Source: Fragum whitleyi
Lineage: Eukaryota > Mollusca > Bivalvia > Cardiida > Cardiidae
Assembly (NCBI GenBank): GCA_948146395.1
Contig: OX411556.1
Span: 32,455,056 to 32,519,055, forward strand
DNA length: 64,000 bases
Direction of reading: 5' to 3'
The position numbers and the translations under genes were made by a program. Positions within the stretch are counted from its first letter, which is position 1. Each line of letters starts with the position of its first letter. Of the stretch, positions 7,520-59,600 are shown in pieces. Below the pieces are notes generated by a model. The model searched no databases and was not told where the DNA came from. It saw only the letters and a list, made by a program, of their open reading frames with translations.

Positions 7520-10500
7520 TGGTCATCTTAAGAGTCGTGATATTGCAGTAAATTACGTTATCCTTAAATTTCATAGAAAACTATGAATATAGAAATAAAT
7601 TGTCTATCCCTATCTCACTGGGACTTTTGTAAACAGTGTCTGTTTGATAGCCCATGGTATATAGAATATTTTGAGACTTGTTAGCACTCTTACAAGTGGG
7701 GCTTTAGTGAGATACGTTACCTCAAAGTAAATTACCCATCAAATTTTTAAGACAAGATTTTAGGTTTGTATAGTGAAAAGATAAGACAAAATGACCAGAA
7801 GTGATCTTTTAATACCAAAGTTTATGTTGCTGAATGTATGTAGAGCAAATTCATGGTAATACTTTGTAAATAACCCCCCCCCCCCCTTGAAGACAAGATA
7901 TGGAAGTAAAATACGTTACTTTTGAATTTCAAAGAAAGGTACATAGAAAGAAATGATTTTTCCATATCTGCCCCGAAGCTTTTCTAGAAGCCTATGCAAT
8001 ATTGAACATTTTGAAACTTGTTAGCAGTCTGGCCGCTAGGGCAAATGCGAGATACGTTTCTTTAAAGAAACCAAGCCATATATTTTACATATAACAATTT
8101 TAGTTGTATGTTTTATTATAGAAATTACCTGTAATTTAGTAAAAAATTAAATGACATTGTGTTTTGTTAATGATATTTGTGATTCTGAAGATATTTGAAG
8201 CCCATTTATACTATGACTTGAAAAATATAACCCTTACAACCAATGCATGGGAGTAAAATACGTTACATTTAAATTTCAATTTAATGTATTCAAAAGAAAT
8301 GTTATATTCATCAATCCTCCACTGAATGTTTTGTTACAGTGTTTTTGTTTAAGCTTCTGGGCTTTGGGAGATTTTTTTATGCATCTGGCCATCAACCTTT
8401 TGCAAAATACGTCACTCTAAAGTAACCAATTTACCCATAAATTATCATAGGCTTATTCATATCACATCTGATTGCAATTGTTGTAAAATCCCTCATTGTA
8501 TGAAACAACTATAAACCATAACTGTTTAAAGTATTTTTAAGGTATCAATATAAATTTTAATCATTTCAAGAATCATTGTGGTTTTAAAAGCGTGGAAAAT
8601 ACGTTACCACTTATTTATAGGTATAATTATTTTTGAGCCGCAATCATAGTTTAAGAAAATGCACCAAACAAAATGTTGAGGCAGCTTCCAAATACAATAT
8701 TGAGGCAGTTTATGGTTTCTGCTATGTTTGAGATTTTTTTCACATTTATAAAGAAAACACAAGTTATATACGTTACTTCTGATGATAAGAGACAGTTTTA
8801 ATTGTGAAAAATGATAACCAAATAGATGAAAAAAGCTGTTCCTACAATATTTTAAGCAATATTGTTATGCATTTAGTACAGAAAAGTTAAAAATATTTTT
8901 TAAGAGTTGATCATGATCGTATCCCAGTTGATAGCACAATGAATTTGGTAGCACATTTGACTCCATATCATAGGCACTAGGTTTCATCAGCCAGTACAAA
9001 CGAGTTGATAATCATTCATCTTCGTTGTATAAGCAGCTAGAGGCTTTAAAAGGATGGTGTGATGAATGGAATGATGTGTATGATAAATAAAAGGAATTCA
9101 GGGTTAGGTGGATAAGCCACCTTGATAAGAGTGTTATTCTGTTAAAATGGCCTGAAAATTCCTTGAAGTATTTAGCTCTCTATTGTTTCCAATTGAATGC
9201 AAAGTACATTGCATGAAATCCTTGTTTTGCCAAGAAACTGCGCAATTCAGTTCAATACTGGAAATTTACATGAGTATGACCATATTATGTTCAAATGAAA
9301 AGAACACTGCCATATACATTTTGATTTAGCTATCAAAGAGAGTAATATGTGGTACATTTAAAAGACCCTTTTTTTAGAAAATCAAACATAATTGCTACTT
9401 CCAAAGGACAATTAGATGCACATCAATTGTAATTCTTTTGAACATGATTAGTTCTTACAAAAGAAAAGAAAAGATTTTAGTAAAACATGTATGCTTAAAA
9501 ATGATTTAACTTTGAACGAGATACAAACTAAAAGTACTTTTTATGCAGAAAGAAACATATCTTAGATAGAATTAGTGCTCCTTTTATTACTTACATTCTA
9601 AAACAATAAGAGATTTATGATAAATTGCTGAAGCAAAAGGATTTCATCAATATCAAGCCCTCATTCAAATACAACCAAAGACTTGATTCATAAGAATAAG
9701 AAAATTGCATGATGGGTCTGTAAGTCACATGCATATAAGGGCTTTATAGGTGTTTATGTGTAAATGGCTGGTGATTTAACATTCTATTTGCATTCCCGTG
9801 TGACATTGCTGGATGACATTCAATTTGCAATTTGTGTTAAAGTAGAGGAAAGAATTGAAGAGTGCCTATTCTAATCAATATACTCCTGTTTCTTGGGCAT
9901 AACTCTCATATTTTTCTCATGTGCTTAAGTACAAGACTCTTCTCCTAACCATTAAGTTTAATTCTTACCACTTGGCCAACATTCCTAACAAACAATTGGA
10001 AAAACATGCAGTAAAACCAAAAAATCCATCTTAATCAAAGAAAAAACAATGATTTTGATTTAATTGGCTACAGTATTGACACTGAAGTGCATTTAAGATA
10101 ATTGAGACTTGTTTCATACAAATGGTAATATACGTTACTAGATAATGACCAACGGTATTCTGCTTCAAAACATTTATAGGCAACAAATTAACCAATGCAC
10201 GAAATTAGAGATAAACTAGAACTGTCGCAGAGCGGACTAATACCCCCCACAAACGCTTTGTCAGAATGTAAGTGCTATTAGTGCAGGATGTGTTTGTAAC
10301 AAATATTGAGGTCATATGTAGCATTTGCTTGAAGTTTCATGATTCTAGGTTCTTCATGCTTGGTTTTTTGGTTTAAGAGTCCAGAAATGAAAATTGAACA
10401 AAAATTCACTGTGACCTTGACCTTTGACCTATATGACCCAAAAACGAAAGGGCACTTCCTTAGATCATAAGCAATATTTGCGTAATGTTTCATGCATGTA

Positions 10501-13500
10501 GGTCACTTGGTTCTCGAGTTAGAGTCCGGAACGAAAATTGAACAAAAATTTACTGTGACCTTGACCTTTGACCTATGTAACCCAAAAACAATAGGTCACT
10601 TCCTTGGGTCATAAGGAACATTTGTATAAAGTTTCATGATTGTAGGCCACTTGGTTCTTGAGTTAGAGTCCGGAAACGAAAATTGAACAAAGGCTGACTG
10701 TGACCTTGACCTTTGATCTATATGACCCAAAATCAATAGGGCAGTTCCTTGGGTCATAAGGAACATTTGTAAAAGTTTCACGATTGTATGTCATTTGGTT
10801 CTTGATTAAGAGTCCGGAAACGAAAAGGTCTACGGACGGACGGATGGACTGACGGACGGACGGATGGACGGACGGATGGACAGACAGACAGACATGGTGA
10901 AACCAATATACCCCCCTCTACTTCGTAGGTGGGGGGTATAATGATATACATGCTTTAGTAACTTAGTATTTTTGAAAAAAGTTTCAATTAATTAAATTCT
11001 TTTAGCGTTCATGCTGCATTGTGTGATTGATAGATATGTAATTGCTCTGAACAGATATATCCATATGATGAAATTAAACAATAGGTATAGTAGAACACAA
11101 AGTACATATCCATATCTATCAAAAAGCCAGTATTTTTATTGAATATTTCAAATATTTGTAATTTCTAATTTAAAATGATTATCAAGATCTGTGCTGAACT
11201 AGAAGGGTGTTCATATTTCGATTTCAGCTATTGGATATACATGTATGAATGATTTGGCTATTTCAAAATTATGATCTCAAATCTTGGTATAAAATTTTTA
11301 ACTTTGTGAGATGGGATACTACAAATGATACTAACTTCAATTTCTATGATTTACCACTTTACACTAAAAGACAACATGTAAAAACTAGCATTTAATAAGA
11401 ATTTACTTCTTGGCTGTTCAAAGATATAAAATTGACCTCTCAATCAAGGTCTAAATTTTAATACCATTAGTGTTAGGGGATCTTTGTTTTTTTGTTGGTC
11501 ACGCATTAGCCTTCACTACCGATGCATTTTCTAAGAAACAAAACTAAGGGCTATAATTTCAAAGAATTGTAACCCTTAATGATGAAAAATAAAACTGTTT
11601 TAGCGGGTTTTCGTAAAACATTTTGAGGTAACGTATGTTACAACATCCCACCAGAGACATAAAGCATTTGTTGTTATAAGGATGTCAGTTATAAATGATA
11701 TTCTTATTTTATTATGCATGATCAGAGTAGTAAATTGCAGCTGCCATTCTCCTTTTTTCTGTTTATGAACGGCATATGAAATTACATCGTATAAATGGTT
11801 TAAAGGACATGTGCTCAAATCTTTCATTTCTACGTATACAACACGTTATATGCAGGCCAAAATAAAATATTTAAATTTGAATTGATCATATTTTTTGTGA
11901 ATTTTGCCAACAAGTGTTGACTTTGAATATTTTTGGCACCCAAATGCCAATATCTTTTTATAGGCGAATATTGAGAAGCAATTTTGTAATTGTAACGTAT
12001 ATTTAACGTATTTTCTTGAATCATACAGGATTCTGTGGATGTTTCATCACTCATTCTAAGAATCGTGTATGAGATAGTACCAAAAATCGCAATCTGCCGA
12101 AAGAATTTCACAAAATGGGAGCAAAATGTAGCATTTAATAAGGATCTAGGGTGGGTGATTTCAAAGTAACACATCTTACAAAAGTCCCACTCGCCAGAGT
12201 GCTAACATGTCTTAAAATGTTGCTTATACATGTACCTTTCAGAAAATCATAGTGTACAAAATTCCCTCGGGGGGGGGGGGGGGGGGGGCGGGGGTCCCAA
12301 TCGCCCATAGTCTACTTGTACACTTAGAAACATCGTGAAATTGATAAGTTAAATAATCATTTATCATTTCGAATGATTTTGAATCAAAATGCAGAGCGGG
12401 TTTTAAATGAAATTTAAGGGAAGTAATATACTATCTCCGACTTCGTACAAATTGAACGCGATTGTCGATATTCTATTGCCGCTCATTAAAAAGAATGACA
12501 AACATTTCTATAAGAGGTATTTGTGTCTTCGCAGAAGATTCCAAACCATCACCAGCTTATATAAGAAGAAGAATTATTTGTTCGTTTAGAAACTTAGTTT
12601 TGAAGCATTATGAACGATTATTTTGTGTCTCATTTCGGGTGATTTTAGAGTGTTTATGAATAGTCTGATTGAGTGTTTGGTATGGATAAAAGGAGCGTTG
12701 AAATAACAATTTACAACAGTTTAGAATGGGATAAGTGTCATTTTCATGGTGTTTCTAACTGTAATAATTTATCAATGTTTAGCGTAGTTAAATACTGAAA
12801 TCTTTTGGCAGTAAAATATATGAATCTGAAAAACATCAATCTTTGGTATCATAAAAATACTTTGATATTGCATCAGGCTATCACGTGACAAGGATTACTA
12901 AGTTGTTCATATACATGTTCTTTGATAATCGATGCTAAAACTGAAAAAAAAATAAAAAAAAAAACATGAAAAAAAAATTCTGTTGTTTTTGAGTGCGGTT
13001 TTTCATTTCAAAGCTTCATGCGGTCAAAAGTCAACTCATATATACCTGTAGATGGGAGATGACGACACCAACAAACAGACCAAACATTACCAAGATGGCA
13101 CCGCCCAACACCGGATATGGTATACAAACAAATATGGCGGATATTTTAGCGAATATTCCAAATATGACATACACGATACCAGCACACACAAACACGCTTC
13201 GACTAGCTACCTGTAATGAAAAAAAAAATGTTCAAGGCTTAGATGTAGTGGGGTTTAAAATAAAGCGCACATTTTGTAGAAAATAATATATCACTCAACA
13301 ACTTTAAGTTATATCGGTCAATGTACGCGCTTCTTTGTTTCAAATCATTAATCCCTGGGGTGCGTTCGGTAGAATTAAGATTTTTTAAAAATCTTAAGAT
13401 TTCCAATCAGGATATTTCGCGCAACTCAGTTTATATTCTACGATGCGGCGCGGTACATGTTTGTTCACCTCGAAACTTTGGTAATGACGGTTTAAATATG

Positions 13501-19500: not shown

Positions 19501-22500
19501 TCTTTCATAAGACCATACCAAGAAAAAAATATTCAAAGAATATCCACGAAAGGGCGATTTTTCTGTACTCTTATCGGAGACTGGGACTTTAACAACCGTT
19601 TATAAAATTTTCTTGCTTTATCGGAATATATAGGTAGCTGTTATACGGTTCTTGCGCGTTACACATACGCTGATCACGCGCAAGCATTTCTAGAATGCCA
19701 AAAACAACGAATGAAATTTTCTTAGTACATTGACAACAACACTGTACTTTCGGTCTATTTGAATCATTCAGTGGTCAATTAGGCCTTCAGTAATTGACAG
19801 CAGTGATCCATTTATTCATCTTACTTATAGCTTTTATTTCTCCATCTTCCCCGGAACAAAACGAATCGTCCTGGTTCGACATCAGTAGTAATGGGATAAT
19901 GTACACAGAGGTGGCGCCTTGAAATATCGGTATTCTGAAAGGTAAATGGTGGTGGCGAAAGAGCGTTTTATTTAGGTTTCTTACGGTTGTTTGCTGTTGT
20001 TTTTTAATCACGGCCTTGTCGCTTAACCTGGACATTCATACACATGAATTTGGTACCAGTAAAAAATGTTAAAAATCGAAAACTATGTGTAACTTTTACT
20101 AAACCGAACAGCCAATTGCTTTTAGAAAAAACTCCACAATCGATAACCGACTCCTTACAACAGTTTATCATAAGATTACGTCATGTAATATGAGAAAACA
20201 AAATCGCTATTCTTAAAAAAGCTTATAAAAAAATAATGTGATTCGAATCAATTCCAAACAGCGCCACATTATAATATGGCTATTGGCGGGTCACAAAAAC
20301 CTATTTATGTGGCTATTGTCGTAACACAAACATTATTCCCAAATAGTGTCATTGCTATTGCCAAAAACACAAATCTTATTCCAGAAAATGTGATGCCTAT
20401 TTTCATTACCTCAACCTTATTCCAAAGTAGATTATTGCTGTCGTCGTTAAATTAATCATTTTCTAAAAAAAAAAAGCGTCAAGAGTTGTATCGTGATATC
20501 GACCTTATTCCAAACAGAGTCATGGCTATTGTCGTAACAACAACCTCATTCATCATGTGACAAGCGCCATGGCTATTATTGTCGTAAACTTCACCTTCAA
20601 TCCAAACAGATTGGTGACTTTTGTCGCGACACAAACAATATTCCGACAAACGCCATGGCTATTGACCAAACACAATACTTATTCACACAAGCGCTTGACT
20701 ATTGCCTTAGCATGAAACTTATTCCAACAATCCCCATGACTATTGTCGTGACACCAACCTTAATATACTTAGCGCGACGGCTAATGTCGAAACACAAACA
20801 AAACTCCAAACAGAGTCATTGCACTTGTCTTAAAATCAACCTTATTTCAAACTATTGCCGTTACACCAACCTCATTCCAACAAACGGCAATACTATTGCC
20901 GTAACACATTCCTTCTTCCACCAAAAGTCTTGGCTATTGTCTCAACAATCTTCATTAATATTGTCGTGACACCAACCTTATTCCAACAAGCGTCATTGCT
21001 ATTGTCGAAACATCGGCCTTATTCCAACAAGCACCATGTCTAATGTAGACGTGTATCACCGTCAACTATCAATGAAGGCTCTGTTCATGTAGACGATGGA
21101 ACCAGTCTATGTCTTAGATAACACTAACCTTATTCCAAAAAGCGTCATGGCTATTGTCGTAACACCACTCATCATCAATGTAGAGCTTAGAAGTCGTGAC
21201 TTGATATTGTCGTTATCAGAGGCACACACGACGTCAGCAACCATAAGGGAGATAACTATCTGCGAACTCAGTGCCATTAACCCATGCTAAATGATAAATA
21301 AGACTACGTCTGGTCACAAATTAAAAGTAAATGCACATGCTTAACTTTAAATACTCATTTTTTTGAAATTAGAATTCGAAAATGGACTTTCGAGAACTAG
21401 ATACAAAGAATTGCAAATATCAATTTAAACATTGACGGACAAGATAAAGGAAGATGCATTTGCTGTTTGTTTGTTTAACCGTGTGAATAAAGAAAATTTA
21501 GGAAATTGAGCGCACTCGATACGTATGTTTTCCAGGAAAAATCTCCGTAGAAAAACAACTTTAAGACAAATTTAATCGAGAGAAAACAAGACAACAGCCG
21601 CTCGAGCGGTTAATTCGTCCCACATAGATGAATCTACTGAGATTATTAGACGAAAATTTAATTTTTTAATGGTTTCCCCCTTTCTTTTTTTTCAAAAAAA
21701 AAAAAAAAAAAAAAAAGAAAAAAAGATAAGTAACATGCTGAAATATTTCTGAAAAGAAATAACATGGTCGATGAATAACATGTAGAAAATTGACCTCAAC
21801 CCGTAAAACACATACTTTTCACACAACTAATAATTTTGAGCAGGCAAACAAATGGTTTCCAAATGAACATTCCAGTGAACATAGAGAAATGACATCCATC
21901 CATAAAAGCCATATTTTTCAACTGATCACAACATTTTGGAGGCTGTTAAAGGGTCACTAAAGGACGATTCCAGTGAAATTTGGTTGAAAACCACTTGTTA
22001 GATTCCTAGAACAGTCATATATTATACCATATATGGAAATTAAACATGCCATTAAAGCCTTGATTTCATGGAATCAAGAGTCCTTATACAATTTTGAAAG
22101 ACGGTCATACAGGCATCATTTAAGTAAAGTTTGGTTAAAATTCATTCGGTAGTTTTTGAGAAGTTTATGACCGGACGCACGACGGACACAGCGCAATGGC
22201 AATACACCCAGTAGCCTTCGGCAAGTGGAGCTAAAAAGCGAAATTTTTCAGTCTATGACTAAGATTTACAACTTTTTACAACACTTATCAAAGCCCCAAC
22301 CCTTCCAGCTGAACCCAATGATCTCCTTGATATACATCGTACCTGAATTCCACAAAATATGACGATGTAAAACGGCGGTGTTTCGTTTATGCCGTAAATC
22401 ATATCTTTACGAGGCATTTTCTCAATGATGACGTCGGCATCTTTCTTGGCGTCAGAATCAAACGTGTCCTTGCCATTTTCAAGAAGCTCCTGATTCGTCG

Positions 22501-22540
22501 TTTCTTGGATTCCATTTCTCTTCTTAAGCGAATCCGTCAT
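5613..22540 (-). CDS. SLC23A1-like: SLC23-family nucleobase/ascorbate transporter, complete, 12 coding exons
   Basis: Exons (minus strand, 5' to 3'): 22540-22343, 21286-21129, 19934-19825, 18085-17997, 16647-16466, 15468-15348, 14445-14289, 13912-13659, 13210-13046, 7171-7063, 6334-6239, 5818-5613. Every junction is GT-AG and all phases agree, giving about 614 residues; human SLC23A1 is about 600. Family hallmarks seen: Q66-H67 of the TM1 QH motif, a glycosylated loop (residues 156-185), SIGDYYACAR (365-374), NRGIxTEG with E393, the transporter signature ending T422-K423, and LDNTVPG near the last membrane segment. The family are multi-pass plasma-membrane carriers: vertebrate members co-transport Na+ and L-ascorbate, others carry nucleobases. 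The first signature position is Ile (I414) instead of Gln/Glu/Pro, so the substrate is uncertain. The start is the first Met of exon 1, before a hydrophilic N-tail. Confidence 0.93.
6239..6334 (-). CDS. SLC23A1-like: SLC23 exon 11 (residues 515-546)
   Basis: Acceptor ACCAG completes Gly515, then YGAFDRIMSMLLRNPNLTGM and CFLDNTVP. The LDNTVPG motif is shared with vertebrate SVCTs. Donor GTATCA leaves one base. Confidence 0.92.
6726..6905. repeat. Recent 90-bp tandem duplication
   Basis: Two copies of a 90-bp unit starting TCATTGATAAGCAGTTTCGA (6726 and 6816) differ at about two positions. It lies in SLC23 intron 10 with no gene content. Confidence 0.9.
7063..7171 (-). CDS. SLC23A1-like: SLC23 exon 10 (residues 479-514)
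   Basis: Acceptor TTTCAG, then VTQMSSPRNMAILGLSTFLG (mammalian FVDMNSSRNLF...). It ends NPVNT plus one base before donor GTACAT. It is separated from exon 9 by a ~5.9 kb intron holding a large inverted-repeat element. Confidence 0.92.
7484..7514. repeat. Poly-T run (31 nt)
   Basis: Uninterrupted T run inside the large element; length is likely variable or an assembly compromise. Confidence 0.9.
10216..10941 (+). mobile_element. Pearl-like element with TGACCTTGACCTTTGACC units
   Basis: Three ~150-bp units each hold GTGACCTTGACCTTTGACC (10411, 10555, and a variant at 10700). They are followed by a GGACGGACGG microsatellite (10830-10890) and a terminal hairpin CCCCCCTC-TACTTCGTAGGTGGGGGG. The same family lies at 45320-45786. 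Confidence 0.8.
12296..13045. other. SLC23 intron 9, remainder
   Basis: A solo CATCGTGAAATTGATAAG end near 12333 and an A-rich run at ~12944-12985. Otherwise nothing. Confidence 0.4.
13046..13210 (-). CDS. SLC23A1-like: SLC23 exon 9 (residues 424-478)
   Basis: Acceptor TTACAG, then VASRSVFVCAG (after the signature), PYPVLGGAILVMFG and VISHLQ before donor GTATAT. The conserved P-x-P-[VI]-L-G-G turn between membrane helices is intact. Confidence 0.94.
13659..13912 (-). CDS. SLC23A1-like: SLC23 exon 8 (TM7-TM10, substrate-site exon, residues 339-423)
   Basis: Contains SIGDYYACAR, HAVNRGILTEG (E393) and the family signature. The signature reads I-N-A-G-A-I-A-I-T-K, against the usual [Q/E/P]-N-x-G-x4-T-[R/K/G]. 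Every position fits except the first, which is Ile. Donor GTAATT after AAG, phase 0. Bases around 13735 confirm ATC AAC GCT GGT. Confidence 0.95.
14289..14445 (-). CDS. SLC23A1-like: SLC23 exon 7 (residues 287-338)
   Basis: Acceptor ATCTAG, then TM segment FNWLLCGLLTYVGAFTDNP and GYRARTDAR, near-identical to the mammalian FQARTDAR. It ends IPYP plus one base before donor GTATGT. Confidence 0.93.
14550..15001. mobile_element. MITE with CATCGTGAAATTG terminal repeats (copy 1)
   Basis: The left end TACAGTTAGATACATCGTGA and the right end CAACTTCACGATGTTGTTAT are inverted. The interior is rich in CATTCATTC/ACTCACTC. About 450 bp, in SLC23 intron 6. It shares both ends with 23941-25797; a solo end occurs near 12333. 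Confidence 0.65.
15348..15468 (-). CDS. SLC23A1-like: SLC23 exon 6 (residues 246-286)
   Basis: Acceptor TTTCAG. The first base completes Ser246, followed by a hydrophobic TM segment and a basic loop ending FPVHKIFA; donor GTGAGA, phase 0. The mammalian counterpart is the segment ending QIFKMFP. Confidence 0.9.
16085..16300 (-). mobile_element. Pearl-like 3' end fragment (reverse orientation)
   Basis: CACCCCTTCAAAGAAGAGGG, then GGTCGGTCGGTGGGTCG and CCGTCCGTAGACC, then GAGCATATCTCAAGCTATGG: a hairpin end, microsatellite and start of a tandem unit, in reverse. Confidence 0.5.
16466..16647 (-). CDS. SLC23A1-like: SLC23 exon 5 (residues 186-245)
   Basis: Starts LQGSLMAVG (mammalian EVQGAIM) and includes RFIGPLTIVPTK, ending in WGITF plus two bases before donor GTAAGT. 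The acceptor TTTCAG is only 12 nt from the terminal repeat of a MITE at 16660. Confidence 0.92.
16660..16889. mobile_element. GCCTGTGC-type MITE next to SLC23 exon 5
   Basis: The left end GAGCATGTGCATGAAATGTT and the diverged right end AAATTGTTGAAAAATTAACC match the ~29-bp inverted ends of the family. The middle has CAGTCTGTGCATCCGTACAG, which is shared by all copies. The left edge is 12 nt from exon 5. Confidence 0.7.
17611..17853. mobile_element. GCCTGTGC-type MITE (best-preserved copy)
   Basis: The ends GAGACTGTGCGTGAGATTTC and GGAAATGTCACGCACAGGCT are clear inverted repeats. The core CAGCCTGTGCATTTGCACAG is present. SLC23 intron 4. Confidence 0.75.
17997..18085 (-). CDS. SLC23A1-like: SLC23 exon 4 (extracellular loop, residues 156-185)
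   Basis: Found by phase: exon 3 leaves one base and exon 5 starts in phase 0, and this 89-bp segment (TTTCAG acceptor, GGTAAC donor) satisfies both. It encodes K-QMMNSTSVNGSMNTVDS and ends NIQR. It has two N-glycosylation sequons (N-S-T, N-G-S), as in the TM3-TM4 loop of vertebrate members. Another frame is also open, but only this frame joins both neighbours. Confidence 0.75.
18724..18966. mobile_element. Short MITE with CGTAGCCCAGCGTCA ends
   Basis: CGTAGCCCAGCGTCA (left) and its exact complement TGACGCTGGGCTACG (right) bound ~240 bp without open frames, in SLC23 intron 3. Confidence 0.6.
18967..19824. other. SLC23 intron 3, remainder
   Basis: Unique-looking DNA without motifs that could be assigned. 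A 101-codon minus frame (18879-19184) overlaps the MITE and has no family features. Confidence 0.35.
19825..19934 (-). CDS. SLC23A1-like: SLC23 exon 3 (residues 119-155, TM3)
   Basis: Acceptor TTTCAG. The first base completes Arg119, followed by IPIFQGATSVYIIPLL, equivalent to the mammalian RLPLFQASAF segment. The donor follows ATAA (GTAAG), leaving one base. The open frame runs 13 codons past this donor, but those codons do not resemble the family. Confidence 0.85.
20255..21115 (-). repeat. Degenerate ~42-bp minisatellite made of SLC23 exon-2 end plus donor
   Basis: About 20 imperfect units. The best (21000-21045) read on the minus strand TTTCGACAATAGCAATGACG then CTTGTTGGAATAAGGTTGG, against the real exon end GTTACGACAATAGCCATGAC then GCTTTTTGGAATAAGGTTAG. 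The unit is 42 bp (14 codons); in the exon frame a unit encodes VSTIAMTLVGIR, against VTTIAMTLFGIR in the exon. The array fills the exon-2-proximal half of intron 2. Plus-strand open frames here are artefacts of this array. Confidence 0.85.
21129..21286 (-). CDS. SLC23A1-like: SLC23 exon 2 (residues 67-118, TM1-TM2)
   Basis: Acceptor TTTAG precedes CAT (H67). The exon encodes the rest of TM1 and TM2 and ends GGAATAAG/GTTAGT, leaving two bases of an Arg codon. The last ~36 bases are the same sequence as the unit of the minisatellite that follows in intron 2. Confidence 0.88.
21688..21712. repeat. Poly-A run
   Basis: A-run of about 22 nt followed by GAAAAAAAG, between SLC23 exons 1 and 2. Confidence 0.8.
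21765..22236 (+). mobile_element. Pearl-like element (CCTTCGGCAAGTGGAGCT end)
   Basis: Units contain CATTCCAGTGAA... and CATATTTTTCAACTGATCAC. The end is ACCGGACGCACGACGGACAC then TAGCCTTCGGCAAGTGGAGC. Same family as 40640-42268. It ends ~100 bp from SLC23 exon 1. Confidence 0.65.
22343..22540 (-). CDS. SLC23A1-like: SLC23 exon 1 (residues 1-66, start codon)
   Basis: Encodes a charged cytoplasmic N-terminus, then the family-typical DMIYGINETPPFYIVIFCGI entering TM1. It ends in CAG followed by donor GTACG, phase 0. The final Gln is the Q of the QH motif, so that motif is split across intron 1. Confidence 0.9.
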
Positions 22541-40100: not shown

Positions 40101-43100
40101 GACAGGCATCAGTAAAACAATTTGCCCCAAATCATATGGAGGGGGGGGGGGCATAAAAATAGCCCCTCTAATGTAGCTCCATGACTTAATCCATATCCTC
40201 TTTGCATATCAGTATTTGTTTAACATCATCCTCCTAATTGACTGTGAAATTTTAGTTTTACGATTTCTTGCCGGGTTATATAAAGATTATTCCTGACTGG
40301 AAAATTGATGTCATATTTTCCAGCCAAGAGTAAATCTTCATATATAACCCAGCAAGAAACTGTGTTACCAATTTATCATACTGCAAAGTTATAGACTAAA
40401 TATCTACCTTTTGTCTATGAAAGGCGGTGGTATGCACTGAATTCTTCTAAACTACCAATATCCCCCAATGCGCCCCAAATGGAAAGTAAACATTTAGTGA
40501 CTTTATAGGTATTTGAGACGTCATGCAATTATATTCTGCAATGCTGTGATAGAGGCGCTTGAGTGCCTGATTCGCTCCACAGGCCTGAATATCCTGATAA
40601 TGATTATAAGAGGTTGATAAGGCTGTTTAAAAAATATCTTGATCAATGAATAACAAATTTGAAAATTGACCTCTGCCTGTTAAAAACGTATTTTTCATCC
40701 GATCACAATAATTTTCTGCAGTCCGATAATGGGTCACCCAAGGATCAATCTAGTGAAATTTGGCTTAAGTCCAAATATAAAAACTTCAACACAAACAGAA
40801 TGTTACTGCACAATATACTGGTACTTTGTCTGCAAAATTCTGCTTTTCATTAAACACTACTAAAAGGATGTTACTTCACAATAATTGTTTGTCATCAAAA
40901 CAAAATTCTATCTAATGATGATAAAAAGTTAAATATTCAGTCCAATATATTTATTTTATTCTGCCCAATGCCTTTGAGTGCAGTCATCTCAGCTCTTTCT
41001 ACCCAACTCTGAACCTCAGGAGGTCAGAATGTCATTTTACACGACTTGAACTCTTTGTGTAGAGTCACCCTGCAGTTTAGAGTGCAGTTTACTCAATTCT
41101 TTTTACCCTACTCTGAACCTTGGTAGGACAGAACAAGTTTTACACCAATTGTCCTCTTTGTGCAGTCACACCTCGTGCAACTAAACTAACCGATTCTCAG
41201 GGGGTATTCTCAGGCTACCTATTTCAACTAATGTTTCTATACATTTGGATTTCAACAAAGGTTTTGTTCTTTCTTATCTACAATCTTTACGCCTTTTTAT
41301 TTTTTTTAAGTCTAGAAAAATTCATCATTTAGGTGATACCCGAAGGGTGATCAAATATTCACTTTATATGTTGAAATGTCCTCTGCCAATAAAATACATG
41401 CTGTTCAACTAATCAAAATATTTTTAGCAGACTAATACAACTTAGCATGAATAAATTCCTATGATATTTGGTTGAAATCCATCTGTTTAAACTTTGAGAA
41501 AGTTTGTTTTCCCTATGTTGGATATTTCACTGTATAAGAATTCTGAAGAAATGACCTCTGCCAATGAACAACATATTTTTCATTTGATCACTATATTTTT
41601 TGTAGACTGATAAAGGATCACTAAATAATCATTCCAGTGAAATGTGGTTGATATCCAACAATTAGATTCTGAGAAAATAATTTTCAAAGTTTTCACTATA
41701 TAACATATAAAGTAATGACCTCCGCCCATAAAATACATATTTTTAATCTGATCAAAATACTTTTTTCTATTACTTGTAAAGGATCATTAAAGAATCACTC
41801 CAGTGTAATTTGGTTGATATCCATCAATTAGATTCTGAGAAAATGATTTTCAAAGTTTCCACTATAAAACATATAGAGAAATGACCTCCGCCCGTAAAAT
41901 ACATATTTTTCATCTGATCACAAAAATTTTTTTAGACTTATAAAGGGTCACTCAAGGAACATTCCTGTGAAATTTGGTTGATATCCATCATTAGTTTCTG
42001 AGTAAGTCACATATATCCATATAAGGAAATAAGCCACACCTACTACAGCAATGATTTTCAACTGATTTAAATTCTTTGAAGGAATCTGATAGAGGGTCAC
42101 CAAATGAACATTCAAGTGAAATTTGATTGGAATCCATCCAGTACTTTATGAGAAGAACATTTTTAAAGTAAAAGTTCACGGACATAGCGACGAACACATG
42201 GACGCACAGACGACAGACAACCGGCCATGACAATAGCCCCAATGGCCTTTCGGCTAGTGGAGCTAATAAAAGCCATTCTTGGTTGATTTTGCAATTCAAT
42301 GCTAGAGAATCATGGCTGCCATTATCTGTTCGAATTATTGCTTAAATTATTGAAATATTTTTTATCTAAAATCCAAAATACCCCGTCTATCTCCAGCTCT
42401 GTTTTTTCCACAGCAGCTGAGCTAAAAATTAACTTACTTGTAAACCCCCTGTATAAGATCTTGATGTATAATATCCAGAGAACTGTCAGGTTTAGTACTC
42501 TCCTCTCCATTTAACACAACCTTCATCTTGTGATATTGGTCATGAATTAGGGAAAGTTGCTGGAAATAGAATATTTGTAAACAAGAGTGCCCTAGTCACA
42601 ATATATGCCGCCTCTTTGCTGCTGTTTCATGAAAAAAATTGTAGACATTACTTATTTTGACAGAACCAAATTCAAAACATTTGCAGACTACCTGTTTAAT
42701 TTATCAATTCAAACTGTTCATTATGATTGATTGATTAAATGGTCACCTCTTTAAACTGCTACCAAAAATAAAAACAAGAGGGCCATAGTGGCCCTAAATC
42801 GCTCACCTAAGTGAACTGTCACAAATTGTTTAAAGTAGATTTAGAAAGGATGAAGAATTCTGACCAAATTTCAGGTTGATTGGGCAAAAAATGATGCCTC
42901 TACACTGCTTACAAGGCTTTTGTAAGATTTGATCCCATGTCCTAGTTTTTGACCCCACTTGACCCAATTTCAAACTTGACCTAAATTTCATCAAGATGAT
43001 CATTCTGAACAATTTTCAGATTAATTGAGCAAAAAATATGGCTTCCAGAGTATCTACAGGGTTTTTCTATGATTTGACCTAGTGACCTTGTTTTGGACCC

Positions 43101-46100
43101 AATGGACCAAATTTCAAACTTGACCTAGATTTCATTAAGAATATCATTCTGACCATTTTTCAGGTTGATTGAGCAAAAAATAAGGGTTTGAGAGTGTCTA
43201 TAAGGTTTTTCAAAGATTTGACCCCATTACCTCTTTTTTTACCCCATTTGACCCAATTTCGGACTTGTCTGAGATTTTATTAAGTCAATTATTCTGAACA
43301 AATTTCAGGTTGATAGGACAAAAAATATGGCTTCTAGAGTGTCTACAAGGTTTTTCTAAGATTTGACCCCATGACCTCTTTTTTGTCCCCACTTTACCCA
43401 ATTTTGAACTTGTGCGAGATTTCATCAAGACAATCATTCTGATCAAATTTCAGGTTGATCGGGCATAAAATATGGCTTCTACAGTGTCTACAAGGCTTTT
43501 CTAAGATTTGACCCCATGACCTTATTTTTGACCCTGCTTGACCCAATTTCAAACTTGTCCGTGATTTTATTAAGACAATTATTCTGATCAAATTTCAGAT
43601 TGATCAGACAAAAATGTGGCTTCTAGAGTGTCTACAAGGTTTTTCTAAGACTTGACCCCATTACCTCTTTTTTGACCCCACTTGACCCAATTTCCAACTT
43701 GTCTGAGATTATATCAAGACAATCATTCTGATCAAATTTTAGGTTGATCGGGCATAAAATATGGCTTCTAGAGTGTCTACAAGGTTTTTCTAATATTTGA
43801 CCCCCTGACCTCATTTTTGACCCCCACTTGACCAAATTTTGAATTTGTGCGAGTTTTCATCAAGACAATCATTCTGACCAAATTTCAGGTTGATCGGGCA
43901 AAAATGTGGCCTCTAGAATGTCTACAAGGTAAATGTTGACAACACGAGACACAAGACGGACGACGGACATCACCAGACCACAAAAGCTCACCTTGAGCAC
44001 TTCGTGCTCAGGTGAGCTAATAAACAAGATGAAGAATAACATTTGAAAGTATCAACCAAATAAATCCTTAAAAAGAGACGTTCACTTTCATCTCAAATGT
44101 ACAATTTGTATTATTAGAAAATTAACAATACAGCTACTTTTACCATAAAGGAGGAGTTGCATTCTCACACACTAGACATGAAGGCCCTTTTTTCCATGAT
44201 GCAGCTGAAATTCACTTAACTGCAACATCATGAACAAATTCAGGTAACAATGAACATTTCATAGAAATATCTTTAAAATAAGTCCATAAATAAAGGAGGA
44301 GTTGCATTCACATTATTACAAGAAGGCCCCTTTTTTTTCCGAGAAAAACAAGATGTGTTTGTGAAACACTAATGCCCCCGTAACAGCATTTTTTAAAAAA
44401 GTATGACCTTGACAGATGACCTTGACCTTGTCACATGACCTTGACGTTGGTACCAGCAGATGCGGATCATTGAGATCTATCATCATGCCAAATATGAGCC
44501 TTGTATCTTGAATGGGCTTGAAGATATTGGCAATGTTAAGTTTTTTGGTTAACTTTTTGTGTTATTTGATCTTGACAGATGACCTTGACCTTGTCACATG
44601 ACCTTGACTTTGGTACCAGCAGATGCGGATCATTGAGATCTATCATCATGCCAAATATGAGCCTTGTATCTTGAATAGGCTTGAAGATATTGGCAATGTT
44701 AAGTTTTTTGGTTAACTTTTTGAGTTATTTGACCTTGACAGATGACCTTGACCTTGTCACATGACCTTGACTTTGGTATCAGCAGATGCGGATCATTGAG
44801 ATCTATCATCATGCCAAATATGAGCCTTGTATCTTGAATAGCCTTGAAGATATTGGCAATGTTAAGTTTTTTGGTTAACTTTTGCAGACAGACAGACAGA
44901 AGGACAGACGGACAGACGGACAACGGTAAAACAATATGCCCCCGATCTTTCGATACGGGGGCATAAAAAATAGCTGAAGTTATACTGTCTGCATGAATGA
45001 TTTCATTGGACAATTGATTTTTTGTTTGACAGCTTTTATGTATCAATTAATCTCAACAGAAAACTGTTACATCATTCACCTTTAAAGCAAACAATCCAAC
45101 TTACATTCAGACAAGAACTAGAAAATATTTCTTCCACTGCATTACATGTTTCCTTCAGGTTTTCTGATATAAGGCTGTTCTCTTCAGTCTCTTTAAAACA
45201 TGGGTAACACTACAATCAGCAAAATAGATTCATAAATGCTTTACAAAGAGTTCAACAGCAACTTCTGAGAATGAGGAGTCAAACAGACTCTAAGCTAATA
45301 AAATCAAGGAGTGTAAGCTTAATATAGAGACATATGTGACTCAAAAACAATAGGACACTTCCTTGGGTCATTAGCAGCATTTGCATGAAGTGTCATGATT
45401 CGAGGTCTCTTGGTTCTTGAGTTGGAGTCCGTAAACAAAAATTGAACAATGATTGACAGTGACCTTGACCTTTGACATATGAGACCCAAAAAACAATAGG
45501 GCACTTCCTTGGGACATAAGCTACATTTGCATGAAGTTTCATGATTCTAGAGTCATAGTCCGGAAACAAAAATTGAACAAAGGCTGAATGTGACCTTGAC
45601 CTTTGACCTATGTGACCCAAAAAAATAGGGCACTTCCTTGGGTCATATGCAGCATTTCCATAAAGTTTCATGATTCTAGAAACAAGAGGTCTACAGACAG
45701 ACAGCCAGATGGACGGACAGATAGATGGACAGACAGACATAGTGAAACTAATATGCCCCCTCTACTTCGTAGATGGGGGGTAAAATTACCAATGCTTGCT
45801 ATACACTAGTTTTACTCTATATAGCTGAAAATAAAGGGAAGTGGGGTCAGCCCAATCTAAACGGAATAGAAATATTGAAATACATAATAATCTTTTTACA
45901 TGACCAATGCTCTATCCATTGAGCAAAAGAAGACCTTCTTTGGCTCAATGGGTAGTGCATGGATTTTGTAAACCTAAATTTTCACTATTTCTTGTCTGGG
46001 TGGGTACGAAACGGGCTTGCGTCAGTTTATTTTCATTATGCTTCAGTTGCAGACATGTTGTTGGCAAGACTCTTTGTATGCAGAATGCATAATATTCCTT

Positions 46101-56697: not shown

Positions 56698-59600
56698 GTA
56701 ATTTATTTCTCATTTTTAGCTTGGCTGTTTTCGAGGAAAACTCGGGGTATTGCTATAGCCTTGGTGTGGTCGTTTTTGTCGTCGTCGATGTGCGAAACTT
56801 TGACATTTTGTGATAACTTTTGAATGGTAAGTGATAGGGCCTTAATATTTCACATGATGATTACATGAGACAAGGCCTTTCTTTTGGTTACAAGTTAAAG
56901 GTAGATAGTAAAGGTCAAGGTCATTTTTCAAGATCATTGACCCCCCCCTCACCACACACACAAACAACCAAATTTAAACATTTGCCATAACTTACTTTTG
57001 CATGGTAAGTGAATGGGCCTTCATATTTCACATGATAATTATTTGGGTCAACGCCTTTCTATTTGTACCAAGTTTAAGGTCATCAGTGAAGGTCAAGGTC
57101 ATTTTTCAAGGTCAAACTTTTGGGAAAAAAACAACAAATTTTAGTTATTGCCATAACTTACTTTTGAATGGTATGTGATAGGGTCTTCATATTTCACATG
57201 ACGATTATTTGGGATAAGGCCTTTCTGTTTGTACTAAGTTTAAGGTCATCAGTCAATGTCAAAGTCATTTTTCAAGGTTAGACTTTTGAAAAAATCCAAA
57301 TCTTAACATTGGCCTTAAATTTTGAATGGTAAGTGATAAGGCCTTCACACCCCAAATGATAATTACCTTGGACAATGCCTTTCTGCTGGGACCAATTTCA
57401 AGGTCATCAGTCAAGTTCCGGGTCATTTGTAAGGTCAATTTTTCGTAGATAAAACTGATATTAGCCGTAACTTTAAATTGTTAAGTCATAGAGCTTTGAA
57501 ATTTCACATGTGCATTGATTGTGATAAGACCGTCACATGCATAACAATGCCAAGATCATAGGTCATTTGGTGAAAGTCACTCATTTATAACTTAAACACT
57601 TCATAATTTGCTTTATATTTTTTGACTGGTAAAGACATTAACTGCTCAAAAGTGGTTTCTAGAAGCATTTTGTGCAAATAATGCCTCTTTTTGGACTCAG
57701 ATTTTTTCACCATCCAGCACTTAACAGCCGAGCGTAGGCACCCGTAGGCAGTTCTCTTGTTTATGTTTATATTAGAAGCGACAAGAGCTCATTGTTTTTT
57801 AGGGCGACTGATTTCAATAAAGATATTGCTGGATCTTTGGCGTCGTCGCTTTTGACGGCGTTTCGATCGGCTTCGTCATAATGGGAAACTTTGGCATTTT
57901 GTAAAATCCCTCAAAACTTAGAATATACGATATATATTCATAAAATTGTTTTGTAGTTAAAGGCAAAGACAATTCTTCATAATAATTCATGAATTTTCAA
58001 TCTGTGACCTTTTAGTGAAAAGTAAATTATGTCTAAAGATGCATAGAAAACGTTGTGACCTTCAACTGACATCCCATAAGCATGTACCATGGACTACCCA
58101 AAAACCAAGTTTCTCAAAAGCTTAATAAGACAACTGCAGATCGAGCAATGCTAATTGCTCGCATTGAGGACAGAGAAGAACACCAGAGAGACAATGTTAA
58201 ACAGAAAAGAGGCAAGATACAGTTTTAAACCGAGCAATAAGATGACGAATTACTGCTCGACACAAAGTTTAAAAAAAACAGCAATTGTTTGGTCAACAGA
58301 AAGCCACCATATCACTCAAAATCGGCAAGTCAAATGGTTTTGGGTCTGCAATACTTAGAAAACGACATAAAACTTACGAATTACTACAAATCATTATGCT
58401 TTGGCGTGTCGAATGGAATTTAAGGCAACGACGAAGAGTCTACTGGTACGATGAAAGCAGATTCCTTCGTGATGCTGTGGCAAAGAATTGGTGTTTTTGT
58501 GCACTTTTGGACTTTGTGTATGCACGCTCATAAACATGATTTTTATCCGTTTGTCGTATTTAGTATTGTTCTAACAAAAAGTATAGTAAGTGGATGTAAA
58601 TCGTTTTTTGGTTATGTTTATATTATACATGTATTTAAAATAGGCCCACTATCAACGAAATACTTCTATTATCAAAAGCACTACGTGTATATTTTTAGTA
58701 GACATTGTGACACTTTCTCGACAAAGAGTTTTTATCGACTATTCAGTACTCAACAGCCGAGCGCAGACACCCGCAAATAGTTCTCTTGTTTACTCAAAAG
58801 ACGTTCCTCTTGCTGCACCCAATGGCTTCCGACAATGGTTTCACTGCTTGAGCAGTGGAGTACCGCGTGGTTTAAAATACATGCATAGGACACCGGGACA
58901 GAGGAACAGATTCCAATAATGCTTTTGCTAAGCGATTGTTTTCTGCTCACAAAATTTACTCCTCTTTCGCAGATGTGTCTATCATCGAGGGTTGCATGTA
59001 AATACCAACTTGCTTTGGCTTATGTCGCCCGGACAAAATGTTAGACTGGTCAATATTCAAAGTGATCGTTGACGAAATTTCTTGTAAGAAGCTTTTTTCA
59101 AGGGGAAAGTGGGTCAAAAGTAAAACGTTTAAAGTAGTTTTAAGAGATCTTTGGACGGTTAAAAACGCTTTTTTTAAAAAAAAAAAAGGTGATCGTCTGC
59201 CGACGCCAATCCACATTGTTGTCCAATTATATGTTACAAGGAAGCACGAAGGCCATAGTTGTAAACGCATTGAAGTCGCCTTATACAGTGACTTGCCGTT
59301 GTTGTTGTTTTTCCTGTAAATCTTATTCGGTGTTCTGTACACGGTGATCTATTTGAATGATCTCACGGGCTCCGTACGGGAAACACATTTCCTTGCAATT
59401 TTTAATTGCAATTACAACTCAAGCACCCAAAAAAATCTTTATGAAAAAGGGCTCTGTGTTCTGTGACTACATTTACATTTACATATACACCATAGAAATA
59501 TGTACTACTACATTAAATCGTACGACCACCGCACGGTATCCGTTCGGGGAATCGTATGATTATGGGATTTTTTTCAATTTCCCGATTACGCCGAATTATA

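What the first reader, a model, noticed from the sequence alone, without database searches (positions are those of the whole stretch)
20255..21290. Minisatellite built from an exon end and its splice donor: an array of decoy donors
The ~42-bp units following SLC23 exon 2 are copies of that exon's own 3' end together with its GGAATAAG/GTTAGT donor (consensus ...GGAATAAGGTTGGTGT). The unit is 14 codons, and the best unit still encodes VSTIAMTLVGIR against VTTIAMTLFGIR in the exon. About 20 near-donors therefore follow the true donor in the same intron. Seen directly: the array and its match to the exon. Inferred: it grew out of the exon end, because the exon part is conserved in the protein family. 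It could change splice-site choice or supply in-frame 14-residue insertions in TM2.
Basis: partly seen in the sequence, partly recalled or inferred. Interest (0 to 1): 0.8.

Follow-up and report, generated by a model that had tools for sequence, protein, structure and literature searches.

The report
Splice-donor minisatellite in clam transporter gene
In a clam-like genome, the end of one exon of a vitamin-C-transporter-family gene, together with its splice signal, was copied about 17 times in a row into the following intron, where the copies now look like decaying, harmless decoys; such 'mirage' repeats were known from lancelets, and a younger, in-frame one turned up in a sister gene.

Summary
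On the minus strand, coding exon 2 of an apparently intact SLC23 gene (21286-21129, donor GGAATAAG|GTTAGT) is followed, after about 65 bp, by 17 degenerate copies (21059-20283) of its last 37 nt plus four intron nt. No other copy was found in the 1.22-Gb genome. The exon is the founder: its end aligns without gaps to 24 protein relatives, and the copies' consensus matches it at 39 of 41 positions.

The functional reading mostly fails. The period is 41 bp, not 42. The exon frame stops at 21109, before every decoy donor, so none gives an in-frame insertion. Seven of 17 units keep AG|GT, as expected under neutral decay.

The structure matches the 'mirages' of lancelet genes (PMC3087553). Follow-up gave three more donor-side exon copies among 61 loci. 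In the best, L057, another SLC23 exon end is followed by nine mostly near-identical copies about 105 bp apart, seven with the gene's own donor, the first four in frame. Exon copying (4 of 61) is no commoner than copying of flanking segments (45 of 366), so ordinary minisatellite birth, tolerated downstream of a donor, is the best explanation.

The parts
22343..22540 (-). coding exon 1 of the SLC23 gene (MTDSLKK...FCGIQ), donor CAG|GTACGA
   Evidence: translation and splice signals; protein relatives
21129..21286 (-). coding exon 2 (HGLMALSSQ...GVTTIAMTLFGI + AG), acceptor ATTTAG|CATGGG, donor GGAATAAG|GTTAGT, phase 2
   Evidence: GT at the same place and phase in 16 of 21 SLC23 loci scored
21125..21165 (-). 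founder unit: last 37 nt of exon 2 plus intron +1 to +4
21060..21124 (-). about 65 bp between the founder and the first clear copy; holds the in-frame TAG (21109) that ends any read-through into the array
20283..21059 (-). array of 17 degenerate copies, commonest spacing 41 bp
   Evidence: TRF sees only two short stretches of it
20973..21014 (-). one of the two best-kept units (VSTIAMTLVGIR, AAG|GTTGGT)
20499..20541 (-). the other best-kept unit, which still encodes VTTIAMTLFGIR, with AAG|GTCGAT
20459..20500 (-). weak unit (score 15) with a poly-T run that makes an acceptor-like CTTTTTTTTTTTAG; a 47-nt cryptic exon from it would stop at once
19934..19936 (-). exon 3 acceptor AG (19936-19935) and first exon nt (CTTTCAG|AATACCG, RIPIFQGAT...)

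Best explanation
This is a mirage-type minisatellite: a 41-bp segment made of the last 37 nt of exon 2 and the first 4 nt of the intron was tandemly multiplied by replication slippage or unequal exchange, and the copies then decayed neutrally inside the intron. Short matching sequence on the two sides of the junction (GTGTTA starting 37 nt before the exon end and again at intron +5, 41 bp apart) is the likely seed. It was tolerated because growth on the donor side leaves the original exon, its donor and its frame upstream and untouched. The copies most likely have no role in splicing. Shown: anatomy, founder, uniqueness within the limits of the search, decay pattern, stop codon. Inferred: slippage or unequal exchange, the seed, tolerance, and normal use of the original donor.
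For: The exon end is the ancestor: in an alignment with 24 protein relatives the segment has no gap, and M105, G107, G117, R119, P121, Q124 and G125 of the conceptual protein are invariant; the consensus built from the 17 copies alone equals the exon at 39 of 41 positions, while the single copy closest to that consensus has 38 of 41. The unit was found only here in the genome. Copies match the exon about equally at codon positions 1, 2 and 3 (0.757, 0.808, 0.816), so they show no coding constraint; GT at the donor place survives in 10 of 17 units (0.59), like the mean dinucleotide (0.60), and AG|GT in 7 of 17 (0.41), like the mean four-mer (0.39). The exon frame hits TAG at 21109 before any copy. 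The genome is rich in local duplications: 45 of 366 random flank segments have a local direct copy, against 4 of 61 exon regions by the same test. In all 4 exon cases the copies lie downstream of the donor. The same structure is described in lancelet genes, where RT-PCR suggests regular splicing (PMC3087553, section 16 read in full).
Against: No transcript data, so normal splicing is unproven. The true donor is weak by U1 pairing (-6.2 kcal/mol) and four unit donors are about as good (-6.0 to -6.9), so some misuse is possible. 3.2% of sliding 846-bp windows of the strand, those over the array included, hold as many U1-competent sites as the array with the true donor (6), so the array is somewhat enriched. 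The GTGTTA after the exon could be a remnant of a first lost copy rather than a pre-existing seed. Seventeen units give little power to see weak selection, and the alignment used hides insertions.
Confidence: 0.85

Rival explanations
1. The array is a functional bank of decoy donors that tunes SLC23 expression: use of a decoy gives a premature stop, so the array sends a share of transcripts to nonsense-mediated decay.
For: 5 sites besides the true donor pair with U1 about as well as it does, against about 1.5 expected per 846 bp; every decoy lies beyond the in-frame TAG at 21109.
Against: Donor dinucleotides decay at the same rate as the rest of the unit (10 of 17 against 0.60); only 7 of 17 units keep AG|GT. 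Whether orthologous introns share the array could not be searched.
Confidence: 0.07
2. The array supplies in-frame insertions to the transporter.
For: Two units still encode the exon peptide or nearly so.
Against: Spacing 41 bp; TAG in frame before the array; a cryptic exon from the poly-T acceptor stops at once; no insertion at this place in 24 of 24 relatives.
Confidence: 0.01
3. The intron itself was born from a tandem duplication of an AGGT-bearing exon segment (Rogers model) and the array is its birth mark.
For: The unit holds AAGGT; 5 of 21 SLC23 loci lack an intron here; tandem duplication is an accepted route of intron gain (PMC4974935, passages read).
Against: 16 of 21 loci have GT at the same place and phase, so the intron very likely predates this array; by the self-comparison the array is in one of them only; no unit-like site scoring 20 or more lies between 19306 and 20282 on the minus strand, that is next to the acceptor.
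Confidence: 0.03
4. An unrelated satellite or mobile repeat landed next to the exon and resembles it by chance or by gene conversion of the exon.
For: The genome has many minisatellites.
Against: Consensus of the copies and exon agree at 39 of 41; unit found nowhere else; exon peptide aligns without gaps across bivalves.
Confidence: 0.02

Closest known systems
'Mirage' minisatellites of lancelet genes (Adh3, globins BflGb6 and BflGb9, others; PMC3087553 section 16 read; PMC3902484 one passage read; the original paper, Canestro et al. 2002, is not held and is known here only as cited)
   Same: Minisatellite-like tandem copies that span an exon-intron boundary and carry splice signals; unit lengths given there are 10-72 bp (Adh3) and about 150-160 bp (globins); the authentic boundary stands at the edge of the cluster.
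   Different: Here in a bivalve-like genome; the four cases seen are all on the donor side, whereas lancelets show both boundaries; the window array is strongly decayed; regular splicing and length variation could not be tested here.
Internal tandem repeats at exon-intron boundaries of recent human paralogues (De Grassi and Ciccarelli, PMC2812944; passages read)
   Same: Minisatellite expansion across an exon-intron boundary in members of duplicated gene families, with possible effects on splicing.
   Different: Those are recent and variable between paralogues, with RNA support; this one is decayed, in one paralogue, without RNA data.
Intron gain by tandem duplication (Rogers model; potato RdRp and, as cited there, fission yeast and ATP2A1; PMC4974935, passages read)
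   Same: Tandem copy of a segment that holds AG|GT.
   Different: Here the intron already stood at a place shared by most paralogues; the copies lie inside it and make no new intron.

Membership tests
Mirage minisatellite (lancelet type) | tandem repeat whose unit spans a real exon-intron boundary | tested here: met
   37 exon nt + 4 intron nt per unit
Mirage minisatellite (lancelet type) | many but not all units carry AG/GT splice signals | tested here: met
   7 of 17 units keep AG|GT; in L057 8 of 10 donor places, the gene's own included, are identical
Mirage minisatellite (lancelet type) | regular splicing is not disturbed | not testable with these tools
   no transcript data for this genome
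Mirage minisatellite (lancelet type) | copy number varies between haplotypes or cells | not testable with these tools
   one assembly only
Intron gain by tandem duplication (Rogers) | intron new at a place where relatives have none | tested here: not met
   16 of 21 SLC23 loci scored have GT at the same place and phase, 5 read through
Dispersed satellite or mobile repeat | same unit at many unrelated loci | tested here: not met
   with the tool's warning that counts are lower bounds
SLC23 nucleobase/ascorbate transporter gene | protein similarity over the family domain | tested here: met
   539 proteins at E <= 0.001 among 7997 scored candidates, 120 listed, with PF00860; SVCT1 structures 8jew and 7ytw

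The most novel reading that the evidence does not exclude
Exon-end-plus-donor arrays are a frequent, recurrent feature of this bivalve's genes, a standing supply of duplicate donors, and the young in-frame one in the SLC23 paralogue at C13:28839868 (L057) is used: donor choice among its first five identical, frame-keeping donors makes transporters with 0 to 4 extra 35-residue segments.
Probability: 0.2. Interest if true: 0.7.

Novelty: new member of a known kind. Interest (0 to 1): 0.42.

Why it matters
It carries a little-studied structure, which under the name 'mirage' I met only for lancelets (repeats at exon-intron boundaries are also reported for human paralogues), into a protostome gene family. 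I saw no mollusc case among the titles and abstract starts listed in the ten paper searches; several lists were capped and the library lacks most subscription journals, so absence from print is not shown. The window array shows the end of the life cycle (decay), L010 and L021 early stages (two copies; two and by eye three), L057 a middle stage (nine further copies, most with identical donors). Such a series in one gene family makes two questions testable: how the splicing machinery picks among identical donors in tandem, and how often such arrays turn into longer exons or new introns.

Tried and rejected
In-frame 14-residue insertion: rejected by the 41-bp spacing and the TAG at 21109. Array as birth mark of the intron: rejected because 16 of 21 SLC23 loci scored have GT at the same place and phase (a 22nd exon-2 locus, L016, was not scored by the script, and L002, L014 and L023 were left out as other exons or as the second copy of L010). 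Dispersed satellite: rejected. Selection for or against decoy donors, and coding constraint on units: tested, not seen. Special liability of exons or of SLC23: not supported, since exon regions (4 of 61) have local copies no more often than flank segments (45 of 366; 39 of 342 without the four loci) by the same test; the 61 loci are not independent, several being exons of one gene, and one (L061) is another exon of the window gene. By TRF, arrays of period 30 or more cover 4.0% of flank bases and 1.3% of matched coding bases. A cryptic exon from the poly-T unit: 47 nt, stops at once. A protein search with the open frame of L057 gave 5 relatives, none with a repeated segment (by eye), so there is no outside support for its in-frame use; no next exon was recognised by eye among the open frames of 1.8 kb beyond it. 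Control families: PF00083 gave 9 loci, 0 with exon copies; PF00209 could not be used because its loci were not given out. In one search I read minus-strand loci in the wrong orientation; one search put that right.

Full report
What is there. The window lies in an unnamed 1.22-Gb genome of 38 contigs. Its SLC23 protein is closest to bivalve proteins: behind a partial Pinctada protein (47%), the next 14 listed hits (P0002-P0015) are 52-57% identical and, where named, come from Mya, Mercenaria, Dreissena, Mactra and Ruditapes, so the host is a bivalve by inference. On the minus strand, coding exon 1 is 22540-22343, exon 2 21286-21129 and exon 3 starts at 19934; further exons down to about 5.6 kb were read by eye from the open frames, and the conceptual protein matches the solved ascorbate transporter SVCT1 (8jew, 7ytw) over residues 31-542 of 588. 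Exon 2 ends ...GVTTIAMTLFGI + AG with the donor GGAATAAG|GTTAGT, phase 2.

The array. A 41-nt query (37 exon nt + GTTA) finds a run of copies from 21059 to 20283, same strand, commonest spacing 41 bp. I count 17 units, chosen from the sites; the two weakest score 15 and 26, and two fragments scoring 13 were left out. Copies agree with the exon at 20 to 36 of 29 to 41 aligned positions, and the consensus of the copies agrees with it at 39 of 41. In the whole window, both strands, 15 array sites score 31 to 64; outside the array the best is 29. In the whole genome the unit was found only here, within the tool's stated limits.

Direction. The exon end is conserved in protein: in an alignment with 24 relatives, picked from the 120 listed, the segment MSGVTTIAMTLFGIRIPIFQG lines up without a gap and M105, G107, G117, R119, P121, Q124 and G125 are invariant, though other residues vary (GITS, GICT, GVR, GSR and so on). 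So the exon is the founder and the array the derived part. The intron is old: 16 of 21 SLC23 exon-2 loci scored have GT at the same place and phase; five (L004, L005, L007, L008, L012) read straight through.

Consequences for splicing. The exon frame runs into TAG at 21109, before the first copy, so any decoy donor gives a premature stop, not an insertion. The six AAG|GT sites of the array lie at offsets of all three frames. By U1 pairing (ViennaRNA duplex energy, a crude measure, with the U1 end from memory) the true donor has -6.2 kcal/mol; five other sites in the 846-bp stretch reach -6.0 or better, against about 1.5 expected from the rest of the strand; four of them are unit donors. With the true donor that makes six, a number reached by 3.2% of sliding windows of this size, those over the array included. 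A unit with a poly-T run makes an acceptor-like site, but the 47-nt exon it could open has an immediate stop.

Decay. Matches to the exon are 0.757, 0.808 and 0.816 at codon positions 1, 2 and 3; GT at the donor place is kept in 10 of 17 units, as expected from the mean dinucleotide (0.60), and AG|GT in 7 of 17, near the mean four-mer (0.39). These counts use a forced global alignment in which insertions are not shown, so they flatter identity a little. They give no sign of selection on coding or on donors.

Relatives. The same self-comparison over 61 loci (22 SLC23 exon-2 loci, 30 of the 89 SLC23 domain matches, the 9 sugar-transporter matches) found local direct copies of the exon in 4: the window gene (L003), L010, L021 and L057. 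L010 (C14:20619227) has a second copy of 96 exon nt at 95% identity, 259 bp downstream, with the donor. L021 (C13:54648718) has a 165-bp period with a second copy at 80% and, by eye, a third, more decayed one. L057 (C13:28839868) is the best: a different exon's end, spacing 105 or 106 bp between most donor places, TRF 9.0 copies at 94%. Its unit holds 79 nt that clearly match the exon end and 26 nt that begin with the donor; by eye the last 20 or so of these resemble the exon just before the 79, so that only about 6 may be intron. Ten donor places were counted, the first being the gene's own: eight read ACAAACAG|GTAATTATGTCC, one has lost GT, one differs at +6. The frame stays open to 2284, past the first four decoys, so there in-frame insertions of 35 residues per unit are possible on paper; nothing shows that they happen, and 5 protein relatives have no such repeat. 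In all four cases the copies lie downstream of the donor; four is too few for a firm statement of asymmetry.

Background. Random flank segments of the same loci have local direct copies in 45 of 366 cases (39 of 342 without the four loci), against 4 of 61 exon regions. TRF arrays of period 30 or more cover 4.0% of 183,000 flank bases and 5.3% of the window. So exons are not preferred targets; this genome makes local tandem duplications freely, and those that start in an exon and end beyond its donor can survive.

Known kind. [quoted passage not shown] it says that they do not seem to disturb regular splicing. PMC3902484 (one passage read) adds PGBD5 and troponin C. PMC2812944 (passages read) describes minisatellite changes at exon-intron boundaries of human duplicated genes. 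The present array meets the structural features; splicing and length variation could not be tested. I therefore file it as a mirage minisatellite in a bivalve-like genome. That no mollusc case is in print is not shown: the listings showed me none, but several were capped and the library lacks most subscription journals.

Verdict. A true and neat observation, with an interpretation that is right on origin and mostly wrong on function. The more promising material is the young array L057.

Noticed in passing
L057:1708-2765 (C13:28839868 region): SLC23 paralogue with nine further, mostly near-identical copies (about 105 bp apart) of an exon end plus donor; the first four decoy donors are in frame with no stop.
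   Followed up: partly
L021:1518-1956 (C13:54648718 region): SLC23 paralogue with a 165-bp tandem duplication of most of exon 2 plus about 20 intron bases, and by eye a third decayed copy.
   Followed up: partly
L010 / L023 (C14:20618971-20619400): SLC23 paralogue with a duplication (about 95% identical) of exon 2's end, its donor and some 160 bp of intron.
   Followed up: partly
L004, L005, L007, L008, L012: Five SLC23 loci lack the intron after G[IV]R that 16 other loci have: loss (or gain) of an intron within one gene family of one genome.
   Followed up: no
window 10376-10826, 41546-42002, 42857-43930, 44404-44883, 56962-57438: Several minisatellites with periods of 144-166 bp, some rich in TGACC motifs; arrays of period 30 or more cover 5.3% of the window.
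   Followed up: partly
L011:2560-2660: Sequence with tRNA-like boxes (AGTTGGTAGCGCGACGGACTG ... GGTTCGATCCC), perhaps a tRNA-derived short element; judged by eye only.
   Followed up: no
L010:1700-1800: Long imperfect palindrome (GCGCAAACAGTTTTCCAATTAT ... ATAATTGAAAAACTGTTTGCGC), like a small inverted-repeat element, upstream of the minus-strand exon; judged by eye only.
   Followed up: no
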